Positions 1 to 13,509 of a stretch of 14,710 bases of DNA are shown here, one piece after another. A program made the position numbers and the translations under genes. The stretch is taken from assembly GCA_025454715.1 (NCBI GenBank), contig JALONY010000040.1:1-14710 (forward strand). The letters run 5' to 3'. This DNA comes from Anaerolineae bacterium (GTDB lineage Bacteria > Chloroflexota > Anaerolineae > Aggregatilineales > Phototrophicaceae). The notes under the pieces were generated by a model, which ran no database searches, was not told the origin of the DNA, and was given only the letters and a program-made list of their open reading frames with translations. Position 1 is the stretch's first letter. Every line of letters begins with the position of its first letter.

Positions 1-636
1 ACCCCGCTCAACTCGATCATCGGCTATAGCGAAATCTTGCTGGACGGGCTGGACGGTGACCTGACCGGTGACGCCCAAGAAGACGTGACGGCCATCCACG
101 AAAGCGGCCAGCACCTGCTGGGGCTGATTAACGAAATCCTCGACCATGCCAAGCTGGAGGCGGGGCAGATGCAGCTCGACCTGCAAACCCTCGACGCCCG
201 CGATGTGGCCATCGAGGTGGTCAAGATGGGCATGGTGCTCAAGAAGGAGCGCCCGATCGATGTCATCCTCGACGCGCCCGCCAAGGTGCCCGCGGTGCGC
301 GCCGACCCGTTCCGCTTGCGCCAAATCTTGCTCAACCTCGTCAGTAACGCGGTCAAGTTCACCGAGGCGGGGCGCGTCACCGTCGCGCTAGAGCCGGTCG
401 AGGACGGGCTGCACGTCTCGGTCAGCGATACCGGCGTGGGCATCGCGCCAGACCACCTCGACCTGATTTTCGAGCGCTTCTCGCAGGTCGATGGCTCCTC
501 GACCCGCCGCGCAGGCGGCACCGGCCTCGGCCTGACCATCACCCGCCAGCTCGTGCAGCTCCACGGGGGTCTCATCGCGGTCGAATCATCCCTCGGTCAA
601 GGCTCACGCTTCAGCTTCGTGCTGCCGCTGGCCTAA
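1..636 (+). CDS. Sensor histidine kinase, C-terminal part (5' end outside window)
   Basis: The frame is open from base 1 and ends at TAA 634-636. The first residues, [11 protein letters not shown], are the end of a HisKA dimerisation box, so the phospho-accepting His lies just left of the window. Downstream comes a complete HATPase_c domain: N-box with Asn codon 346-348 (NLVSNAVKF), G1 box DTGVGI from about 427, F-box FERFSQVD near 470, and G2 box GGTGLGL at 514-531. The protein ends soon after the ATPase fold, so there is no C-terminal receiver on this subunit. It should autophosphorylate and pass phosphate to separate receivers. The next gene starts 34 bases downstream and carries two receivers, and two more receiver genes follow, so a shared phosphorelay is likely. 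Sensor domains and membrane topology cannot be seen here. Confidence 0.93.
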
Positions 637-670: not shown

Positions 671-2767
671 ATGACCGCACATTTCACACACATCGTCTGC
701 CTCGAATGTGGCCACCAGATGCCCCCCAAAGCCGAGCAACGCACCTGTGCCGCGTGCGGTTCCGCGTGGTTGGATGCCCGCTACGACTTGCCCGCCGTGC
801 GTGCCCTATGGGAGGCGGGCGCGCTACGCCACCGCGAGGCCACCCTCTGGCGCTACCGTGAGCTCCTGCCGGTCGATGGCCCCAACCCCGAAATCACCAT
901 GGGCGAGGGCGGCACCGCCCTGCCCCGCCTTTACAGCACCGAACGCCTGTATGGCCACCAGCCCATTTACGTCAAAGACGAGCGCAAGAACCCAACCAAC
1001 TCGTTCAAAGACCGCCAAGCCGCCGTCAGCGTGACGTGGATGCGCAGTGTCGGCATCGGCGAGTGCGTGTTGGCCTCCACCGGCAATGCAGCGGTGGCCT
1101 ATGCCGCCTTTTGCGCCCGTGCCGGAATCCGCCTCTGGCTGTTCATGACCAACGCCGCCCCACTCGAAAAAATGCGCGAGGTCGCGCTATACGGCGCGGA
1201 GGTCGTGCGCGTCAACGGCACCTATGACGAGGCCAAACACATGGCCGCCCAGTTCGCCCAGCGCCGCGGCATCTACATCGACACCGGCGCCAAGGCCATC
1301 CCCAGCAAAGAGAGCATGAAGACGCTGGCCTTCGAAATTGCCGAGGGCTTGGGCTTGGTGCATGACCACGGCAGACCCAGTGGTCAATTCGTCGCGCCCG
1401 ATTGGTACATCCAAGCCGTCAGCGGGGGCATCGGCCCCTTGGGGGTGATGAAGGGCTTCGGCGAATTGTACGAGATGGGCTTGATTGACCGCGTGCCCAA
1501 GCTCGGCATCATCCAAGCGGCGGGTTGCGCCCCGATGGTCAGCGCCTATGCGGCGCAGGCCGAAAAAGCCACGCCCGTCAGCCCCAAGACCCTGATTCAC
1601 GTGTTGGCGACCGGCGACCCGGGCGCGGCCTATGGCTTGTTGCGCGCCCATGCGCTGGCGCACGGTGGGGCGTTCCGTGCCGTCGAGGACGGCGACGCCT
1701 TCCGCGCCATGCGCCAAGTGGCCAGTCAGGCAGGCCTCTCGGTCGAGCCCGCCGCGGCGGTCGCTTTTGCCGGGCTCGAACAGCTCTTGCAAGACGGCAC
1801 TATCCAAGCGGGCGAGGTGGTGGTGGTCAACGCCAGCGGCCACACCCTGACCGCCGAAGGCCACATCCTCGGCGACCAATACGACCGCTACATCTTGTCG
1901 CTCAACGCCCAACCCAGCGGCGCGCAGCTCTCGACCGACCTCGACGCGCTGGCCGAACAAGTCACGACCGTGGTGGTGGTCGATGACAACCCCAACGACC
2001 GCAAGCTCATCCGCCGCCTGCTGCAAAGCTACAAACAATATCGGGTGTACGAGGCCACCGATGGCGCCGACGGCCTGACCGTCGTCCGCGACCGCCAGCC
2101 CGATTTGATCGTGGCCGACCTGACCATGCCGGAAATGGACGGCCTCGATTTCGTGCGCGCCCTCAAATCCGACCCCAAAACCAGCCATATCCCCGTCGTG
2201 GTGGTCTCGGCCAAGAGCATCACCCCCGATGAGCGCACCTTCTTGCGCCGCCACACCGAGTCGGTCTGGACGAAGGGCGATTTCGACACACGACAATTGG
2301 TTGACCATATTGTCTTAACGCTTGGCCATCAACCCGTGGCCAGCCCACGCCGCGAGGCCGTCCGCACCGCCCAACCCGAAGAGGCCGCCGCTCAGCACAC
2401 CATCCTCATCATCGACGATAACCCCGCCGACCTGCGCCTCGCACGGCGCGCCCTCAGCCGCCACCCCGAGTATCAACTGATCGAGGCCAGCGACGGGCGC
2501 GAGGGGTTGAAGGCGATTTACGCGCACCACCCCGACCTAATCGTCCTCGACCTGACCCTGCCTGAGCTCGACGGCTTCACCATCCTCGACACCCTGCACA
2601 ACGACCGTACCCTGCGCGATACACCCGTCATCGTTTTGTCGGCCAAAGGCTTAAATCTTAACGAAAGGACAACGCTTCTGAGGTATACTGATGTTATATT
2701 AGAAAAAGCAGGGTTCGAGGTCGGACAATTTGCCGAAACGGTAAAGCGTAAGTTAAAACCGGATTGA
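671..2767 (+). CDS. Threonine-synthase-like PLP enzyme fused to two receiver domains
   Basis: This is a single 698-residue frame with ATG at 671 and a TAGGAG ribosome site just upstream. Residues 1-35 form a zinc ribbon (Cys10, 13, 26, 29) as in many threonine synthases. Residues about 70-410 are a fold-type II PLP domain: SFKDR with PLP Lys113, STGN at 136-139, a glycine-rich phosphate loop SGGIGPLG at 251-258, and NASGHT at 387-392. Two receiver domains follow, about 433-551 and 577-698. Receiver 1 has Asp438/439, acceptor Asp483, Ser513 and Lys535; receiver 2 has Asp582/583, Asp627, Ser657 and Lys679. The D-to-S and S-to-K spacings are 30 and 22 in both, exactly as in CheY. Threonine synthase itself makes threonine from O-phosphohomoserine, but other fold II lyases or synthases share these motifs, so the substrate is not certain. 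The last 120 bases are unusually AT-rich. The fusion is uninterrupted and unusual; a phosphorylation-controlled enzyme is my inference. Confidence 0.9.
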   Translation: MTAHFTHIVCLECGHQMPPKAEQRTCAACGSAWLDARYDLPAVRALWEAGALRHREATLWRYRELLPVDGPNPEITMGEGGTALPRLYSTERLYGHQPIYVKDERKNPTNSFKDRQAAVSVTWMRSVGIGECVLASTGNAAVAYAAFCARAGIRLWLFMTNAAPLEKMREVALYGAEVVRVNGTYDEAKHMAAQFAQRRGIYIDTGAKAIPSKESMKTLAFEIAEGLGLVHDHGRPSGQFVAPDWYIQAVSGGIGPLGVMKGFGELYEMGLIDRVPKLGIIQAAGCAPMVSAYAAQAEKATPVSPKTLIHVLATGDPGAAYGLLRAHALAHGGAFRAVEDGDAFRAMRQVASQAGLSVEPAAAVAFAGLEQLLQDGTIQAGEVVVVNASGHTLTAEGHILGDQYDRYILSLNAQPSGAQLSTDLDALAEQVTTVVVVDDNPNDRKLIRRLLQSYKQYRVYEATDGADGLTVVRDRQPDLIVADLTMPEMDGLDFVRALKSDPKTSHIPVVVVSAKSITPDERTFLRRHTESVWTKGDFDTRQLVDHIVLTLGHQPVASPRREAVRTAQPEEAAAQHTILIIDDNPADLRLARRALSRHPEYQLIEASDGREGLKAIYAHHPDLIVLDLTLPELDGFTILDTLHNDRTLRDTPVIVLSAKGLNLNERTTLLRYTDVILEKAGFEVGQFAETVKRKLKPD

Positions 2768-2842: not shown

Positions 2843-3220
2843 ATGACGACCGTCCTCTATATCGAAGACAACCCCCACAACATGCGCCTTGTCCGCAAGA
2901 TGCTCCAAACCGATGGGTTCGAAATGGTGGAAGCGCAAGACGGCATGAGCGGCATCGAGGCCGCGCTGGCGCACAACCCCTCCATCATCCTCATGGACAT
3001 CAACCTGCCCGACATCGACGGCCTCGAGGTCACGGCGCGCCTGCGTAAATACCCGCAATTCGCCCGCACCCCGATCATTGCGCTGACGGCCAACGCCATG
3101 CACGGAGACCGTGAGCGCATCACCAGCGGCGGGTGCGACGGCTATTTGGCCAAGCCCATCACGCGCAACGAACTGCTCAACACCATCCGCCGTTTTTTAT
3201 TGGTGGCGCAGACGGCGTAA
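2843..3220 (+). CDS. Single-domain response regulator (DivK/Spo0F-like)
   Basis: This 125-residue protein is only a receiver domain. Its pocket is Glu8/Asp9, acceptor Asp52, Thr82 and Lys104 (YLAKP), with canonical 30 and 22 spacings, so it should be phosphorylatable. There is no output domain, which suits a phosphorelay intermediate or a protein-interaction regulator such as DivK or Spo0F. A TTG at 2828 is also in frame, but ATG 2843 is preferred: GGAG at 2830-2833 sits nine bases before it and the protein then begins with the usual short lead into beta-1 (MTTVLYIEDN). It lies 75 bases after the enzyme-receiver fusion and 72 before the next receiver gene, on the same strand. The partner kinase is probably the one at the left edge, but orphan pairing cannot be excluded. 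Confidence 0.93.
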   Translation: MTTVLYIEDNPHNMRLVRKMLQTDGFEMVEAQDGMSGIEAALAHNPSIILMDINLPDIDGLEVTARLRKYPQFARTPIIALTANAMHGDRERITSGGCDGYLAKPITRNELLNTIRRFLLVAQTA

Positions 3221-3292: not shown

Positions 3293-3655
3293 ATGGCTCG
3301 CATCGTCCTGATCGAAGACAACCCCCTCAACGCACGCTTGGCCGAGCGGTTGCTCCTGCGCGCCGGTCATGAGGTCGAGACGCTGGAGGACGGCGAAAAC
3401 GGCTACGCCTACATCTTGCAAAACCCGCCCGACATCGTCTTGCTCGACCTCGGTCTGCCCGACATCGACGGGCAGACCGTCGCCGCGCTCATCCGCCAGC
3501 ACCCCGACCTCTCGCAGCTGCGCGTGGTGGCGTTCACGGCGTGGCCGGAGGCCATGGCCGCCGAAATCGCGCAAGCCTATGGTTGCAACGGGGTGATCAA
3601 CAAACCGATCGACACCCGCCGCTTCGCCGCGCAGGTCGAGCAGTATTTGTCATGA
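3293..3655 (+). CDS. Single-domain response regulator
   Basis: This is a 120-residue stand-alone receiver: MARIVLIEDN start, Glu8/Asp9, acceptor Asp52 (LLDLGLPDIDG), Thr82 and Lys104 (NKP). It parallels the upstream receiver residue for residue in its pocket positions, but the surface sequence differs enough that the two are not a recent duplication. ATG 3293 is favoured over an in-frame TTG at 3284 because AGAGG at 3278-3282 is well placed. The stop TGA overlaps the ATG of the GNAT gene in an ATGA arrangement, so the two are probably translationally coupled. With no output domain, it probably acts by protein contact or as a phosphate sink; the acetyltransferase next door is a possible partner, by inference only. 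Confidence 0.93.
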   Translation: MARIVLIEDNPLNARLAERLLLRAGHEVETLEDGENGYAYILQNPPDIVLLDLGLPDIDGQTVAALIRQHPDLSQLRVVAFTAWPEAMAAEIAQAYGCNGVINKPIDTRRFAAQVEQYLS

Positions 3656-4521
3656 CCCCGCACGCCGCAGTCGAGCACCCGTCTCGCCCGCTGGCGTTGG
3701 CCAGCGAGTTCAGCTATGACGTGCTGGCCGAGCTCTACAACAACACCCGAGTCGATTACATCGTGCCGATGCCGATGAACGCGGCCAAAATGCGCGAGTA
3801 CGTGACGTTGTACGATGTCGCACTAGACCACTCGTTCGTCGCGTTGGACGGGCACGGTCAACCGGTCGGGCTGGGGATGATGGGCGTGCGCGGCCAACGC
3901 GCATGGATTACGCGGCTGGGCATCTTGCCGTCCCAGCGCGGGCGCGGCCTCGGTCAATCGTTGATGGACGCGATGCTGGGCGCGGCAGGGTCGAGTGGTT
4001 GCCACACCCTCCAGCTCGAGGTCATCCACGGCAACGACCCCGCCCGCCGCTTGTTCGAGGTCAACGGGTTCACCCACGTGCGCGATGTGCTGGTGGTGCG
4101 CCGCCCGCCCCGCACCGGCCAGACCTCGCCCCTCTTCGACCCCAGCATCCAGCTCCAAGACCTGTCCGCCATCCAGATTGAGCGGTGCTTGGCCGCCCGC
4201 ACCGACACCCCGACATGGCTGGACGAAACCCCCTCGGTGCTCAAACGCGGCAACCTGCGCGGCCTCTCGGCCATCGACCCGCACGGGCGCGCCAGCTGGC
4301 TGGTGTATCATGCCGGGCTGTTGCAGCTCTCGCATTTCGTGTTCGGCCCCTACATCGACGAAGGGGTGGCGCGTGCGCTGCTGTTCGCCGCGCACAACGC
4401 ACACCCCAAATCCGATACCAAAATCGAGAACGTCCCTGCCGATAGCCCGTATTGGCCGGTGATGATGTCGATGGGCTACCTGTCCACCTTCACCCGCCAA
4501 GAGATGGTGTTGACGCGCTAG
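3652..4521 (+). CDS. GNAT-family N-acetyltransferase with extra C-terminal domain
   Basis: This 289-residue protein starts at ATG 3652, overlapping the previous stop by four bases; upstream in-frame codons belong to the receiver gene's other frame and are rejected. Residues about 20-150 form a GNAT domain. The acetyl-CoA pyrophosphate loop is QRGRGLG at 95-101, and the beta-5/alpha-4 signature NDPARRLFEVNGF lies near 128-140. Residues about 160-289 form a second block, without a recognisable acetyl-CoA loop, ending in a GNAT-like beta pattern (MMSMGYLSTFTRQEMVL); it may be a degenerate second GNAT half, as in tandem-GNAT proteins. Substrate unknown. Coupling to a receiver gene hints at regulated acetylation within the signalling cluster, which is inference. 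Its TAG overlaps the convergent aminotransferase stop. Confidence 0.85.
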   Translation: MTPHAAVEHPSRPLALASEFSYDVLAELYNNTRVDYIVPMPMNAAKMREYVTLYDVALDHSFVALDGHGQPVGLGMMGVRGQRAWITRLGILPSQRGRGLGQSLMDAMLGAAGSSGCHTLQLEVIHGNDPARRLFEVNGFTHVRDVLVVRRPPRTGQTSPLFDPSIQLQDLSAIQIERCLAARTDTPTWLDETPSVLKRGNLRGLSAIDPHGRASWLVYHAGLLQLSHFVFGPYIDEGVARALLFAAHNAHPKSDTKIENVPADSPYWPVMMSMGYLSTFTRQEMVLTR

Positions 4522-7625: not shown

Positions 7626-7850
7626 ATGTCCAGCGCAAAGAAATTACCGACCAAACCGACCCCACAAGACCGTTTACGCCCAACCAAACCTGCGCGGCTC
7701 ATCCTGCGTAATGACATCGAAAACCCGTCCGATGCTGTCGTCTTGGATAAGCTTCAGGCGGGCTTGGTTGCGGTTGAGAACGGCCAGACATATCCCGCCG
7801 AGGAGATGTTGGCACGCTTGAAAGCCAAGTTCGGGTATGAAAAAGGTTAA
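7626..7850 (+). CDS. Putative type II antitoxin
   Basis: This small 74-residue protein starts at ATG 7626 behind a near-perfect AGGAGGAG ribosome site (9-base spacer). The first 30 residues are rich in Lys, Arg and Pro; the last 35 contain a helix-like YPAEEMLARLKAKFG stretch resembling the C-terminal, toxin-wrapping part of RelB/ParD/Phd-type antitoxins. I do not recognise a definite DNA-binding fold, so the antitoxin class is unresolved. The call rests mainly on context: it precedes and overlaps by 14 bases a RelE/HigB-like toxin gene, the usual order and coupling of type II modules. Its base composition is closer to the chromosome than that of the toxin. Confidence 0.7.
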   Translation: MSSAKKLPTKPTPQDRLRPTKPARLILRNDIENPSDAVVLDKLQAGLVAVENGQTYPAEEMLARLKAKFGYEKG

Positions 7851-8178
7851 TGTCAGAACACATGCCCAATTTGAGCGTGACTTAGAGAAGCTAGAAACAC
7901 GCTATAAGGGCGTTCTACTCGAAGTGGAAAAGCTGATTCATGCTTTACAAAATGGCGACACACTACAAGGGGATCGGATAAAAGGGATTGATCGTGTTGT
8001 CTATAAGATACGGCTTCCAAATCGGGCAGCCAAACGCGGAAAAAGCGGTGGCTTTCGTGTCATTTACTGTCTCATCTTAGACAATGAAGTTATTCTCCTG
8101 ACCATCTATTCTAAGACCGATAAATCTGATATTTCTGCACATAAAATTCGCGAGTTAATCGATTCTTTCAACTCATAG
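7837..8178 (+). CDS. RelE/HigB-family toxin (mRNA interferase)
   Basis: This 113-residue protein has the RelE-superfamily layout: two N-terminal helices (about 10-40), then beta strands with KIRLPNRAAKRGKSGGFRVIY (about 57-77) and a terminal strand TIYSKTDKSDIS (89-100). The GKSGGFRVIY signature is typical of HigB2/RelE-like ribosome-dependent RNases, which cut mRNA in the ribosomal A site. ATG 7837 lies inside the antitoxin gene (14-base overlap) with no clear ribosome site, which fits coupled translation and keeps toxin output below antitoxin. The gene is visibly AT-rich: hand counts give 28 of 60 GC at 7861-7920 and 24 of 60 at 8041-8100, against 40 of 60 at 8281-8340 in the next gene. That suggests horizontal acquisition. 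Confidence 0.88.
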   Translation: MKKVNVRTHAQFERDLEKLETRYKGVLLEVEKLIHALQNGDTLQGDRIKGIDRVVYKIRLPNRAAKRGKSGGFRVIYCLILDNEVILLTIYSKTDKSDISAHKIRELIDSFNS

Positions 8179-8268: not shown

Positions 8269-8685
8269 ATGACAGACCGCGCCATCCGCATTTTAATCGC
8301 CAAGCCCGGCCTCGACGGCCACGACCGCGGCGCAAAGGTCATCGCCCGCGCCCTGCGTGACGCCGGTTTCGAGGTCATCTACACCGGCCTACGCCAAACC
8401 CCCGAGATGATCGCCGAGGCCGCCCTACAAGAAGATGTCGATGTGGTCGGCCTGAGCATCCTCAGCGGCGCGCACCAAACCCTCGTGCCGGTCATCCGCC
8501 AGACGATGAACGCCCACGACCTCGCCGACGTGCCGCTGATTTTGGGCGGCATCATCCCAGAGCAAGACCACGCCGAGATGGCGCAGGCGGGCGTCGAGGC
8601 CATCTTCGGGCCCGGCACCTCCACCGCCGACATCGTGACCACCATCCGCCGCATCGTCGCGGAGCGCGGGGAGCCGACCGCGTGA
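8269..8685 (+). CDS. Cobalamin-binding small subunit of methylmalonyl-CoA mutase
   Basis: This 138-residue protein is a stand-alone B12-binding domain. It carries the DxHxxG motif (Asp16-x-His18-x-x-Gly21, within LDGHDRGAK), whose His is the lower axial cobalt ligand, then the SILSG and LGGIIPEQD loops that cradle the nucleotide tail. Its length and sequence fit the split mutase form found in archaea and several bacterial phyla, where the catalytic TIM-barrel subunit is a separate gene. That large subunit is not in this window. The enzyme interconverts R-methylmalonyl-CoA and succinyl-CoA. Its stop overlaps the GTG start of meaB in a GTGA junction, so the pair is one operon. Related acyl-CoA mutases (isobutyryl- or ethylmalonyl-CoA) use near-identical small subunits, so the exact substrate is not settled. 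Confidence 0.9.
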
Positions 8686-9728
8686 CCGATTCCGCCCCAT
8701 CCCTCGCCGCGGCGGTGCTGTCGGGGAGTCGCCGCGCCCTTGCCCGCGCCCTGACGTGGGTCGAAAACGAACACCCCGACTCCGCCGCGTTGCTCTCCAC
8801 CCTCTACCCGCACGGTGGGCGGGCGTGGGTGGTCGGCATCACCGGCGCGCCCGGCACCGGCAAATCCTCGTTGGTGACGGCGCTGGCCTTGCGCTTGCGC
8901 CAACAGGGCGAGACCGTCGCCATCCTCGCGGTAGACCCGACCAGCCCGTTTACGGGCGGTGCCATCTTGGGCGACCGCATACGAATGCGCGACCTGAGCG
9001 GTGACTCGGGCGTGTTCATCCGCAGCATGGCCACCCGTGGCAGCCTCGGCGGGTTGATCCGCGTGCTGGACGCGGCAGGCTTCGATCGCGTGTTGGTCGA
9101 GACGGTCGGGGCAGGCCAAAGCGAGGTCGATATTGCCCGCGCCGCCCAGACCACCGTGGTGGTCGAGGCGCCCGGCCTCGGCGACGACGTGCAAGCCATC
9201 AAGGCCGGTATCCTCGAAATCGCCGACGTGCTGGCGGTCAACAAAGCCGACCGCGCCGGTGCCGAGAACACCGTCCGCGCCCTGCGCGCCATGTTGGAGC
9301 TCGGCCACCCCACCCAGCGCAACCGCATGGTCAACCACCACGGCCAGCGCATGAGTGCCGAGGCACCCACTCAGGACGACCACGAGGCCGAACTGTGGGT
9401 ACCGCCGCTGGTTCGCACGGTCGCCACCCGCGAGGCCACGCCCGAAAACGACGGCATCGGCGACCTGCTGGACGCCATCGACCGGCACCGCGCCCACCTC
9501 ACCCACGCCGACGGCGACAAGCTCCGCCAGCGCCAGCGCGGGCGCATCGAGGGTGAATTGCTTGACCGCCTGAGCCACGCATTGATGGCGCGCTTGCTGG
9601 CCGCTTTGCCCGCCGGTACGCTCGAGGCGGCCATCGACGACGTGCAGTCCCGCCAGCGCAGCCCGCACCACGCCGTCCAATCGCTTTTGGACAGCGCAGG
9701 TAAGGCCGCCCAACCCAACGGCGTCTAG
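8682..9728 (+). CDS. meaB: Methylmalonyl-CoA mutase-associated GTPase MeaB (ArgK family)
   Basis: This 348-residue G3E-type GTPase begins at GTG 8682, overlapping the mutase subunit stop. It has the P-loop GAPGTGKS at 55-62, [18 protein letters not shown] at about 85-102, [12 protein letters not shown] at 114-125, the switch region [13 protein letters not shown] at 140-152, and NKAD at 187-190 for guanine recognition. This is the full MeaB/ArgK pattern at normal length. MeaB gates delivery of adenosylcobalamin to the mutase and ejects damaged cofactor, so its coupling to the cobalamin-binding subunit is the expected pairing. The older ArgK name (arginine transport kinase) is not supported by the motifs. 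The C-terminal 60 residues match the family's helical dimerisation arm in position. Confidence 0.95.
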
Positions 9729-12279: not shown

Positions 12280-13509
12280 ATGCCCCCGCTGGTACAAGCG
12301 CAAGCCACGCTTACGCATGAAGAGATTCGCCGTTACAGCCGCCACGTCATCATGCCCGAGGTCGGTATCGAAGGGCAACGCCGCCTGAAGGCCGCCAAAG
12401 TCTTGCTGATTGGCACCGGAGGCCTCGGCAGCCCGACCGCCCTCTACTTGGCCGCCGCGGGTGTCGGCACCCTCGGCATCGTCGATTACGACGTGGTCGA
12501 TGAGAGCAACCTGCACCGCCAAGTCATCCACGGCATCTCGACCGTCGGCATGAGCAAGCTGGACAGCGCCGAGAAGCGCCTACGCGACCTCAACCCCGAC
12601 CTCGTCATCCACAAGTACAACGAGCCGTTCACCAGCGACAACGCGCTACGCATCCTCGAGCCCTACGACATCGTGGTCGATGGCACCGACAACTTCCCGA
12701 CCCGCTACTTGGTCAACGACGCGGCGGTCAAGCTGGGCAAGCTCAACGTGTACGGCTCCATCTTCCGTTTCGAGGGGCAGGTGGCCGTGTTCGGCCACGC
12801 CGATGGGCCGTGCTACCGCTGCATGTTCCCCGAGCCGCCCCCGCCCGGCCTCGTCCCGAGCTGCGCCGAGGGCGGCGTGTTGGGCATCCTGCCCGGCACG
12901 GTCGGCACCATGCAAGCCACCGAGGCCATCAAGCTGATTTTGGGCATCGGTGAGCCGTTGGTCGGCAAGATGTTGCTGTACGACGCGCTGGAGATGAGCT
13001 TTACCACGCTCAAGGTTCGCAAGAACCCCAATTGCCCGGTGTGCGGCGTGCCCCACGAGCAAATCGAGCTGATCGACTATGAGCAGTTCTGCGGGATGCC
13101 CGCCCACGACCGCAGTGGGTTCAACACCCCGACCACCACGGTCGATGGGATGCGCGTGATGAACGTGCGCCAGCTCAAGGCGCGCCTCGACAAGGAGCCC
13201 GAGACGCTGGTCTTGGACGTGCGCGACCCGCACGAATGGGCGATTGCCGCGCTGGACGGGTCGCTCCGCATCCCCAAGGGCGACATCCTCGCCGCCAAGG
13301 ACGCGGTACTGGCCGGGCGCGCCAAACCTCGAGGGCGGCATCCTCGCATGGGCAAAGGACATCGACCCGAGCTTGCCGTCGTACTAGCGCCCAAACGCCT
13401 CACCCACCCCGCCCCTCGCCGGTTTTGGCTGAGGGGCGGGGCGGTAGGGTTAGGCGCAACATGTCGCGCCCTGCCGCTCCCCGCGCTTTCCCACCCCCTG
13501 CCCGACTGA
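12280..13509 (+). CDS. moeB: MoeB/MoeZ-type adenylyltransferase with disrupted rhodanese domain
   Basis: Residues 1-270 are a complete E1-like adenylyltransferase: ATP loop GTGGLG at 45-50, R-x-x-R near 70-90, DGTDN at 134-138, catalytic Cys195 in PSCAEGG, and zinc Cys pairs 178/181 and 252/255. Such enzymes adenylate the C-terminal glycine of MoaD, ThiS or CysO-like sulfur carriers for molybdopterin, thiamine or cysteine synthesis. Residues 291-349 start a rhodanese domain (LVLDVRDPHEW). The frame then lacks the CxxGxR active-site segment, and from about 13324 it is shifted; the last 60 residues are low-complexity and run through a hairpin. The expected family ending (NLEGGILAW, ending PSLPSY then stop) is present in the +1 frame at 13325-13387. 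I read this as an internal deletion of 3n+2 bases, or an assembly error. Sulfur transfer from this rhodanese should be lost. Confidence 0.88.
   Translation: MPPLVQAQATLTHEEIRRYSRHVIMPEVGIEGQRRLKAAKVLLIGTGGLGSPTALYLAAAGVGTLGIVDYDVVDESNLHRQVIHGISTVGMSKLDSAEKRLRDLNPDLVIHKYNEPFTSDNALRILEPYDIVVDGTDNFPTRYLVNDAAVKLGKLNVYGSIFRFEGQVAVFGHADGPCYRCMFPEPPPPGLVPSCAEGGVLGILPGTVGTMQATEAIKLILGIGEPLVGKMLLYDALEMSFTTLKVRKNPNCPVCGVPHEQIELIDYEQFCGMPAHDRSGFNTPTTTVDGMRVMNVRQLKARLDKEPETLVLDVRDPHEWAIAALDGSLRIPKGDILAAKDAVLAGRAKPRGRHPRMGKGHRPELAVVLAPKRLTHPAPRRFWLRGGAVGLGATCRALPLPALSHPLPD
13325..13387 (+). pseudogene. Out-of-frame remnant of the rhodanese C-terminus
   Basis: Read in the frame one base ahead of the MoeB-like gene, codons 13325-13384 give NLEGGILAWAKDIDPSLPSY followed by TAG 13385-13387. 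This is the standard C-terminal ending of rhodanese-fused MoeB proteins. It fixes where the ancestral gene ended and shows that sequence between about 13300 and 13325 is missing. Confidence 0.85.
13407..13441 (+). terminator. GC-rich hairpin after the ancestral MoeB stop, possible terminator
   Basis: An 11-bp perfect stem, CCCCGCCCCTC (13407-13417) with GAGGGGCGGGG (13431-13441), encloses a 13-base loop in which GCC and GGC can pair further. It starts 19 bases after the ancestral stop, a terminator-like position. No U-run follows, so it is not a canonical intrinsic terminator; pausing, RNA protection or factor-assisted termination are alternatives. Confidence 0.5.

What the first reader, a model, noticed from the sequence alone, without database searches (positions are those of the whole stretch)
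671..2767. Threonine-synthase-like enzyme fused to two intact receiver domains
A complete zinc-ribbon PLP enzyme (Cys10/13/26/29, PLP Lys113) is joined in one uninterrupted frame to two receivers with full acidic pockets and exact CheY-like spacing (30 then 22 residues). Receivers normally control DNA-binding or second-messenger outputs; direct fusion to an amino-acid biosynthetic fold suggests phosphorylation control of metabolism, or a PLP enzyme reused as a signal sensor (for example of an amino acid). I cannot name a characterised example.
Basis: partly seen in the sequence, partly recalled or inferred. Interest (0 to 1): 0.75.

Follow-up and report, generated by a model that had tools for sequence, protein, structure and literature searches.

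The report
PLP enzyme obligately fused to receivers
In many Chloroflexota bacteria a vitamin-B6 enzyme related to threonine synthase is joined to one or two signal-receiving domains and usually sits next to sensor kinases, so it looks like an enzyme switched by a two-component signal rather than the ordinary threonine-making enzyme that databases name it.

Summary
ORF 671-2767 (+) is one uninterrupted 698-aa frame: zinc ribbon (C10, C13, C26, C29), a fold-type-II PLP domain (Lys113) and two receivers with intact acidic pockets and CheY spacing. It is neither artefact nor rarity: 120 of 120 listed database hits carry PLP and receiver domains, and 100 of 298 sampled genomes of the class match. 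I found no convincing unfused member of this PLP clade. A one-receiver paralogue, frameshifted near its end, is in the window's own genome.

The 'amino-acid biosynthetic' reading is probably wrong. A high-scoring separate ThrC is in 50 of 61 related genomes. The fusions form their own clade. Positions equal to Thermus ThrC N154, S155 and R160 (recalled as holding the substrate's phosphate) are kept in 9 of 9 class-A free ThrC and 0 of 241 fusions, while the PLP site is intact. A histidine kinase gene lies directly upstream in 42 of 55 testable loci. Lone receivers, a GNAT (two-receiver form) or an EamA permease (one-receiver form) often follow.

Best explanation: a response regulator whose output is a PLP enzyme of unknown substrate, gated by phosphorylation (0.6). 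The kind is known; I found no description of this PLP family in the held papers.

The parts
37..636 (+). C-terminal part of a histidine kinase (end of HisKA and full HATPase_c); its start lies off the contig
   Evidence: Pfam HATPase_c 3.1e-34, HisKA positions 29-66 of 66, the latter below its cut-off; 34 bases before the fusion gene
671..2767 (+). Fusion gene: zinc ribbon - PLP fold-type-II domain - receiver 1 - receiver 2, 698 aa
   Evidence: model mean pLDDT 88.9, pTM 0.67
698..757 (+). Zinc-ribbon cysteines C10, C13, C26, C29
   Evidence: sequence; each Cys 120 of 120 in the window-type set; CxxC pair pattern 120 of 120 long, 117 of 121 short
893..1840 (+). PALP (threonine-synthase-like) domain, residues 75-390
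1007..1009 (+). Codon of Lys113, the PLP Schiff-base lysine
   Evidence: aligns with Lys61 of Thermus ThrC; 241 of 241
1919..1957 (+). Linker helix, residues 417-429, between PLP domain and receiver 1
   Evidence: DSSP on the model; low confidence there (block means 58-61)
1970..2311 (+). Receiver 1 (residues 434-547), phosphoacceptor D483
   Evidence: Pfam; D483 in 118 of 120, the other two rows having a gap; two 577-aa forms, P0024 and P0075, have a single receiver that groups with receiver 2
2399..2755 (+). Receiver 2 (residues 577-695), phosphoacceptor D627
   Evidence: D627 and K679 120 of 120
2843..3220 (+). Lone receiver (RR3), 125 aa; ATG chosen over the TTG at 2828
   Evidence: Pfam 5.8e-27; groups with the receiver that follows the fusion in L042 (96/95)
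3293..3655 (+). Lone receiver (RR4), 120 aa
   Evidence: Pfam 4.9e-21; groups with the GNAT-coupled lone receivers of L042, L164 and L212 (100/99)
3652..4521 (+). GNAT-family acetyltransferase, 289 aa, start overlapping the RR4 stop (ATGA)
   Evidence: Pfam Acetyltransf_1 4.7e-15; overlap read

Best explanation
It is a response regulator whose output domain is a PLP enzyme. Shown by sequence: an intact fold-type-II PLP site in a clade apart from threonine synthase, one or two phosphorylation-competent receivers C-terminal to it in every intact member checked, and kinase, receiver and GNAT or EamA genes often next to it. Inferred: a multi-sensor histidine kinase encoded just upstream phosphorylates receiver 1 and/or receiver 2. 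Receiver 1, nearly as conserved as the PLP domain and joined by a short segment, acts from the C-terminal regulatory position typical of allosteric fold-type-II enzymes and changes activity at the PLP site. Receiver 2, on a variable linker, is a second input or a phosphate sink. The substrate is an alpha-amino acid other than O-phosphohomoserine, and the reaction (replacement, elimination or other) is unknown.
For: Catalytic site kept: Lys113, S136-T137-G138-N139 and SGG-GP 251-256 each 241 of 241; Ser or Thr at 389 (Thermus T317) 241 of 241. Threonine-synthase pocket lost: each of the N154, S155, R160 equivalents 9 of 9 in class-A free ThrC, 0 of 241 in fusions. Separate clade: long and short forms together 100/100 on a stem of 2.45 changes per site. 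Obligate fusion: 22 of 22 checked genome loci with SGGxGP carry a C-terminal receiver, one of them cut by a contig end; in a search whose length limit excludes full-length fusions, all 21 of 120 listed proteins without a receiver domain end early, many in partial receivers, frameshift-like or adaptor-like tails. Receivers: pocket positions filled in 117-120 of 120 long forms. Kinase directly upstream on the same strand in 26 of 30 one-receiver and 16 of 25 two-receiver loci. Domain conservation PALP 0.82, receiver 1 0.78, receiver 2 0.635, linker 2 0.30 (54 long rows). C-terminal regulatory domains as a key feature of allosteric fold-type-II enzymes: PMC9081730 (passages).
Against: No activity, substrate or phosphorylation is known. 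Conserved PLP residues would also be kept by a PLP-binding sensor. Free classes B and C also lack the full N-S-R set (class B keeps N in 7 of 9, S and R in 0 of 9; class C R only), so losing it is not special to the fusions. The PLP tree warns that long branches meet, so the place of the fusion clade among the free classes is unsure. The model (pTM 0.67; no interdomain error output) does not show where the receivers dock. 13 of 55 testable loci have no kinase directly upstream: L048, L049, L051, L052, L055, L066, L068, L162 and L165 of the two-receiver form, L149, L157, L158 and L211 of the one-receiver form. The GNAT also occurs beside a lone receiver away from the fusion (8 of 10 fetched loci), so GNAT and PLP enzyme need not share a pathway. 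The acetyl-CoA motif (recalled pattern) is matched in only 9 of 19 of these GNATs.
Confidence: 0.6

Rival explanations
1. The PLP domain is a sensor or adaptor, not an output: it binds PLP and an amino acid, and ligand binding changes how the receivers take or pass on phosphate within a phosphorelay, as enzyme-derived PLP domains sense metabolites in MocR regulators.
For: One-receiver loci are often embedded in phosphorelay-like operons: a hybrid kinase upstream in many, and in 9 of 31 a receiver-kinase within two genes downstream. All fusion receivers tested group with the second receiver of those hybrid kinases, apart from the lone receivers (96/89). MocR precedent: PMC5320631 (start of abstract in search listing).
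Against: The catalytic PLP site is invariant; the domain order, receiver last, is that of an enzyme with C-terminal regulatory domains; GNAT or EamA neighbours suggest metabolism. None of this is decisive.
Confidence: 0.22
2. Phosphorylation does not gate catalysis; the receivers only place or dimerise a constitutive PLP enzyme.
For: The AlphaFold model gives no confident interdomain geometry; receiver 2 hangs on a variable linker (0.30 conserved).
Against: The phosphoacceptor, acidic, Ser/Thr and Lys positions are near-invariant in both receivers, which scaffolding alone would not need; kinase genes adjoin.
Confidence: 0.1
3. A true threonine synthase placed under two-component control.
For: Closest curated family is threonine synthase (PRK08197 258 bits); closest folds are threonine synthases; several databases name relatives threonine synthase; many one-receiver relatives pass the TIGR00260 cut-off.
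Against: P0001 is below the curated cut-offs (258.3 of 303; 122.7 of 167.1); a separate ThrC match of at least 247 bits in 50 of 61 genomes; N154/S155/R160 equivalents absent in 241 of 241; separate clade.
Confidence: 0.05
4. Assembly artefact or chance read-through of neighbouring genes.
For: The contig is from a fragmented genome (444 contigs, 71% complete), and the own-genome paralogue L002 does have a frameshift.
Against: Same length and order in more than two hundred listed database proteins and many genomes.
Confidence: 0.01

Closest known systems
Threonine synthase (ThrC; solved chains 1uim, 1v7c, 2zsj, 2d1f, 6cgq, 2c2b)
   Same: Fold type II, PLP lysine, STGN loop, Ser/Thr at the N1 position, N-terminal zinc-ribbon cysteines as in 8 of 9 class-A free ThrC of related genomes; 29-32% identity over 313-321 aligned residues to the bacterial chains
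   Different: N154/S155/R160 equivalents replaced (mostly Lys/Arg; Gly; Gly, Ala or Ser); SGG-GP where ThrC has GN-GN; invariant KDER and near-invariant FKDRQ; one or two C-terminal receivers; own clade
Cysteate synthase (CapA2 of Alistipes, 9k3c)
   Different: 22% identity; NCBIfam cysteate_syn 97.7 bits against a cut-off of 324.9; the solved chain is 430 residues long
Response regulators with enzymatic output domains (for example REC with a BcsA-like domain, KaiC-REC)
   Same: Receiver joined to a metabolic-type enzyme; lineage-restricted distribution (PMC5847659 section 14)
   Different: None of the examples named in that section is a PLP enzyme; 'pyridoxal' and 'PALP' do not occur in its main text
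Allosteric fold-type-II PLP enzymes with C-terminal regulatory domains (cystathionine beta-synthase; threonine deaminase recalled)
   Same: Regulatory module C-terminal to a conserved PLP core (PMC9081730, passages)
   Different: There the module binds a small effector (AdoMet for CBS); here it is a phosphorylatable receiver
MocR/GabR-type PLP regulators
   Same: A PLP domain inside a regulatory protein
   Different: Aminotransferase-like domain and a GntR DNA-binding domain (PMC5320631, start of abstract); neither is present here

Membership tests
Threonine synthase (ThrC) | Fold-type-II PLP core with Schiff-base lysine | tested here: met
Threonine synthase (ThrC) | Residues recalled to hold the substrate phosphate (Thermus N154, S155, R160) | tested here: not met
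   each 0 of 241 fusions, 9 of 9 free ThrC of class A; the role of these residues is recalled, not from a call
Threonine synthase (ThrC) | Score above curated family cut-off | tested here: not met
   P0001: TIGR00260 122.7 of 167.1, PRK08197 258.3 of 303. Many one-receiver relatives do pass TIGR00260, e.g. G000:C275 177.9
Threonine synthase (ThrC) | O-phosphohomoserine turnover | not testable with these tools
   needs an assay
Two-component response regulator | Receiver with acidic pair, phosphoacceptor Asp, Ser/Thr and Lys | tested here: met
   Both receivers of P0001; 117-120 of 120 in long forms
Two-component response regulator | Kinase partner encoded nearby | tested here: met
   Kinase C-terminus 37-636 in the window; 42 of 55 testable loci
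Two-component response regulator | Phosphorylation changes the output domain | not testable with these tools
   needs purified protein
Cysteate synthase | Score above curated family cut-off | tested here: not met
   TIGR03844 97.7 of 324.9
Cysteate synthase | Structural similarity | tested here: met
MocR/GabR PLP regulators | GntR DNA-binding domain plus fold-type-I PLP domain | tested here: not met
   Pfam finds only PALP and Response_reg

The most novel reading that the evidence does not exclude
These proteins are a distinct class of response regulator that answers a two-component signal by switching on the synthesis or breakdown of a small amino-acid-like molecule. The PLP clade exists only as receiver fusions. 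In one operon type a receiver-coupled GNAT acts beside it, and in the other an EamA permease carries the product out, so the metabolite itself could be the signal or response.
Probability: 0.25. Interest if true: 0.82.

Novelty: new variant of a known kind. Interest (0 to 1): 0.62.

Why it matters
Response regulators mostly act through DNA binding or second messengers (recalled). A whole PLP-enzyme clade that exists only fused to receivers would make direct phosphorelay control of small-molecule chemistry testable in bacteria. It also marks a likely systematic annotation error: many of these proteins, above all the one-receiver form, of which many pass the TIGR00260 cut-off, are named threonine synthase in public databases, although a separate ThrC is usually present and the site recalled for its substrate is gone. 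Because the same clade comes with one or two receivers and in separate operon types, it offers a natural series for asking how receivers regulate an enzyme.

Tried and rejected
Rejected: assembly artefact (same architecture in close relatives and many contigs). Rejected: housekeeping ThrC. Rejected as far as seen: an unfused ancestor still in the databases. A 298-residue profile query was used so that the tool's length limit shuts out full-length fusions. Of its 120 listed hits, 21 have no receiver domain; I read all 21 and they end early, many in partial receivers, frameshift-like or adaptor-like tails. 117 of the 118 proteins new in that search have SGGxGP. Only the best 120 of 6,430 hits are shown, so a distant unfused member is not excluded.

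Led nowhere: the amino-acid-binding dCache motif (recalled) was sought in the first 520 residues of neighbouring proteins of 400 or more residues: strict motif in none, the looser R-x-W-Y core in 2 proteins. Papers: ten searches were made, eight aimed at such fusions or at response-regulator outputs and two at the enzymes. None of the listed titles or abstract starts describes a PLP enzyme joined to receivers, but searches found more papers than they list (45, 1,036, 94 and 65), and most subscription papers are not held, so this is weak. Distribution outside Chloroflexota could not be sampled. Foldseek and VIA-align rows were mostly filled by the PLP domain (a few PleD rows apart), so receivers were judged by sequence; no solved PLP-receiver fusion shows among those rows, which proves nothing.

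Counts with choices in them: context counts rest on a crude gene caller and labels of my own and on loci that I chose for long contigs or that one search returned, not a random draw; two duplicate loci (L159, L160) were dropped, and L153 and L226 fell out because an antisense ORF hid the fusion (one search shows both are fused). In the ten GNAT loci, L203 showed no GNAT call (hidden by an antisense ORF) and L209 no receiver. The receiver check covers 20 stretches fetched for the purpose plus L153 and L226.

Full report

It is a large conserved family. All 120 listed hits of a search with residues 1-425 carry both Pfam domains, the window's own protein included. The window's genome holds a second copy on contig 275 (46% identity over residues 8-521). 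A search with that copy gives a shorter kind of about 557 aa with one receiver: 119 of 120 listed hits carry both domains, the one other (P0129) being marked partial. I call these the long and short forms. In 61 related genomes 52 have a match at 1e-60 or better, some of them both forms. In an even sample of the phylum 34 of 301 genomes have one at 1e-70, and in one of the class 100 of 298. In the class of G170, another class of the phylum, 6 of 120 genomes have it, all of one genus. In the scan of named genome contigs, the loci with a PLP-domain match (L039-L068) are titled as Anaerolineae, Anaerolineales, Aggregatilineales, Thermoflexales, Ardenticatenia or Chloroflexi MAGs. The lower rows of that scan match mainly the receiver half. 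A few database names stand outside this: Armatimonadetes bacterium for P0047 and P0181 (the latter Anaerolineae in another source); misbinning was not tested.

The fusion is obligate as far as I could see. In 20 further class members fetched for the check, and in two loci that my gene caller had missed, every PLP domain with the SGGxGP loop is followed in frame by at least one receiver (22 of 22, one cut by its contig end). One unfused PLP protein seen beside such a locus (L226) lacks the loop and resembles free class C. A third protein search used a 298-residue profile so that the tool's length limit shuts out full-length fusions. All 21 of its 120 listed hits without a receiver domain end early, many within partial receivers or in frameshift-like or adaptor-like tails. 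Distant unfused relatives below the listed 120 are not excluded.

It is probably not the housekeeping threonine synthase. Of 61 genomes, 50 have a TIGR00260 match of at least 247 bits, above the best listed fusion (187.6 bits); nine of these were read and carry no receiver (class A), the others are judged by score and by open frames of at most 539 aa. In the window's own genome, 71% complete, one search gives only two matches and lists one, the contig-275 fusion; a 102-aa frame on contig 152 resembles the N-terminal part. A tree of the PLP domains (13 long, 12 short, 20 free proteins of three classes A, B, C) places long and short forms together at 100/100 on a stem of 2.45 changes per site, with long (98/94) and short (100/98) each a clade; the program warns that long branches meet, so the place of this clade among the free classes is unsure. 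Across 120 long-search and 121 short-search proteins the PLP lysine, the STGN loop and the Ser/Thr equivalent to Thermus T317 are kept in 241 of 241. Positions equal to Thermus N154, S155 and R160 are Asn, Ser and Arg in 9 of 9 class-A free ThrC; in the fusions none of the 241 keeps any of them: position 205 is mostly Lys or Arg, 206 always Gly, 212 Gly, Ala, Ser or once Cys. Free classes B and C lack the full set too, so this loss alone does not define the fusions. That the three residues hold the phosphate of O-phosphohomoserine is recalled from the literature, not from a call. In the alignments to solved ThrC that were printed in part the same contrast shows. The family has invariant basic residues nearby (K189 241 of 241, K or R at 208 241 of 241, K213 120 of 120 in long forms), so an anionic substrate remains possible; that these line the pocket is inference.

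The receivers. In long forms receiver 1 pocket positions are filled in 117-120 of 120; receiver 2 D583, D627 and K679 are 120 of 120. A receiver tree of 60 domains puts all fusion receivers tested, with the second receiver of the neighbouring hybrid kinases, on one side (96/89) and the lone receivers, with two receiver-kinases, on another (98/95). Receiver 1 of the long form lies with the single receivers of the other-class and second-copy fusions (89/69, weak). The single receivers of the 577-aa forms P0024 and P0075 group with receiver 2 (97/98), which is best read as loss of receiver 1 with receiver 2 kept. Mean conservation in 54 long rows is 0.82 for the PLP domain, 0.78 for receiver 1, 0.635 for receiver 2 and 0.30 for the linker between the receivers. 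I read this as receiver 1 working closely with the enzyme and receiver 2 as a tethered second input. The stretch 392-401, just after the conserved GHT motif, is among the least confident parts of the model, yet E396, H398, L400 and D402 are 120 of 120 in long forms: a candidate hinge, by inference only.

Genomic context. In the window the end of a histidine kinase gene stops 34 bases before the fusion, and two lone receivers and a GNAT gene follow, the last overlapping the receiver before it by ATGA. Across 58 distinct fusion loci (27 two-receiver, 31 one-receiver; not a random draw) a kinase is the gene directly upstream on the same strand in 16 of 25 and 26 of 30 that have 3 kb upstream. A lone receiver lies within three genes downstream in 20 of 26 and 5 of 31, GNAT within four in 11 of 26 and 0 of 31, EamA within three in 0 of 26 and 14 of 31. 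The kinases that were scanned carry GAF and PAS domains, some also dCache. In other families of the class the short-form operon also holds dCache-HAMP-GAF-type receptors and a ParA-like ATPase (two loci scanned, L210 and L219; others alike by gene length). In the two other-class genomes examined the order is receiver, GNAT, kinase, fusion, receiver (L212, L213). The GNAT also occurs away from the fusion, next to a lone receiver in 8 of 10 loci fetched. Long form and strong GNAT occur together in 18 genomes, long alone 9, GNAT alone 6, neither 28 (Fisher p 1.7e-4, not corrected for kinship).

Mechanism. Shown: an intact PLP site with a changed substrate pocket, phosphorylation-ready receivers, fusion in every intact member checked, kinase linkage. 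Inferred: the kinase phosphorylates one or both receivers and this changes the PLP domain's activity. A review of PLP enzymes states that a C-terminal regulatory domain is a key feature of allosteric fold-type-II enzymes, with cystathionine beta-synthase held inactive by its own (PMC9081730, passages); here the receivers hold that place. The rival that the PLP domain is a sensor within a phosphorelay fits the short-form operons and stays open.

Novelty. A census paper says that receivers attached to standard metabolic enzymes had been seen in multiple instances, and that the archaeal ones have narrow distributions (PMC5847659, section 14 read; its references 5 and 6 not seen). It does not mention pyridoxal or PALP in its main text, nor does the PeerJ survey PMC4558063 (passages). 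PMC1183210 left other enzymatic output domains out (passages). Eight paper searches aimed at such fusions or outputs list no PLP-receiver fusion (four of them listed only part of what they found). The Herpetosiphon genome paper PMC6210107 (passages) counts two-component genes, and no fusion shows in the passages that I saw. I therefore rate it a new variant of a known kind.

Noticed in passing
L002:1424-3105 (-), own-genome contig 275: The short-form paralogue shifts frame near L002 position 1510, inside the receiver; a 94%-identical relative (P0123) is intact. Assembly error or real lesion not decided.
   Followed up: partly
L210, L214, L216, L218, L219, L225 upstream of the short form: Genes of 260-262 aa sit beside the hybrid kinase in these six loci, with 731-981-aa genes close by; those scanned in L210 and L219 are a ParA/MinD-like ATPase (AAA_31) and kinase-less dCache-HAMP-GAF receptors (dCache below its cut-off in L219).
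   Followed up: partly
window 3652-4521 and relatives: The receiver-coupled GNAT family matches the usual acetyl-CoA motif (recalled pattern) in only 9 of 19 members, so some may not be ordinary acetyltransferases.
   Followed up: partly
public names of one-receiver relatives: Many are named threonine synthase; many pass the TIGR00260 cut-off of 167.1 (up to 187.6 bits, others just below it), a likely systematic misannotation.
   Followed up: partly
L226:11458-12726 (+): A free class-C ThrC-like protein lies just behind a kinase, fusion and lone receiver, in the same direction.
   Followed up: no
L212/L213 (G170, G340), genus g89 of another class: G170 contig C1 is 6,346,587 bases, the length I recall for the Herpetosiphon aurantiacus chromosome; recalled, unchecked. 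If right, a cultured host is at hand.
   Followed up: no
window 7837-8178 (+): RelE-like protein, below Pfam's cut-off (23.0 of 27 bits).
   Followed up: no
window 8269-9728 (+): B12-binding protein and MeaB GTPase gene overlapping by four bases.
   Followed up: no
window 12280-13509 (+): MoeB/MoeZ-like gene whose C-terminal rhodanese-like part (recalled) seems to leave its frame; a rhodanese-like tail lies in another frame ending at 13387.
   Followed up: no
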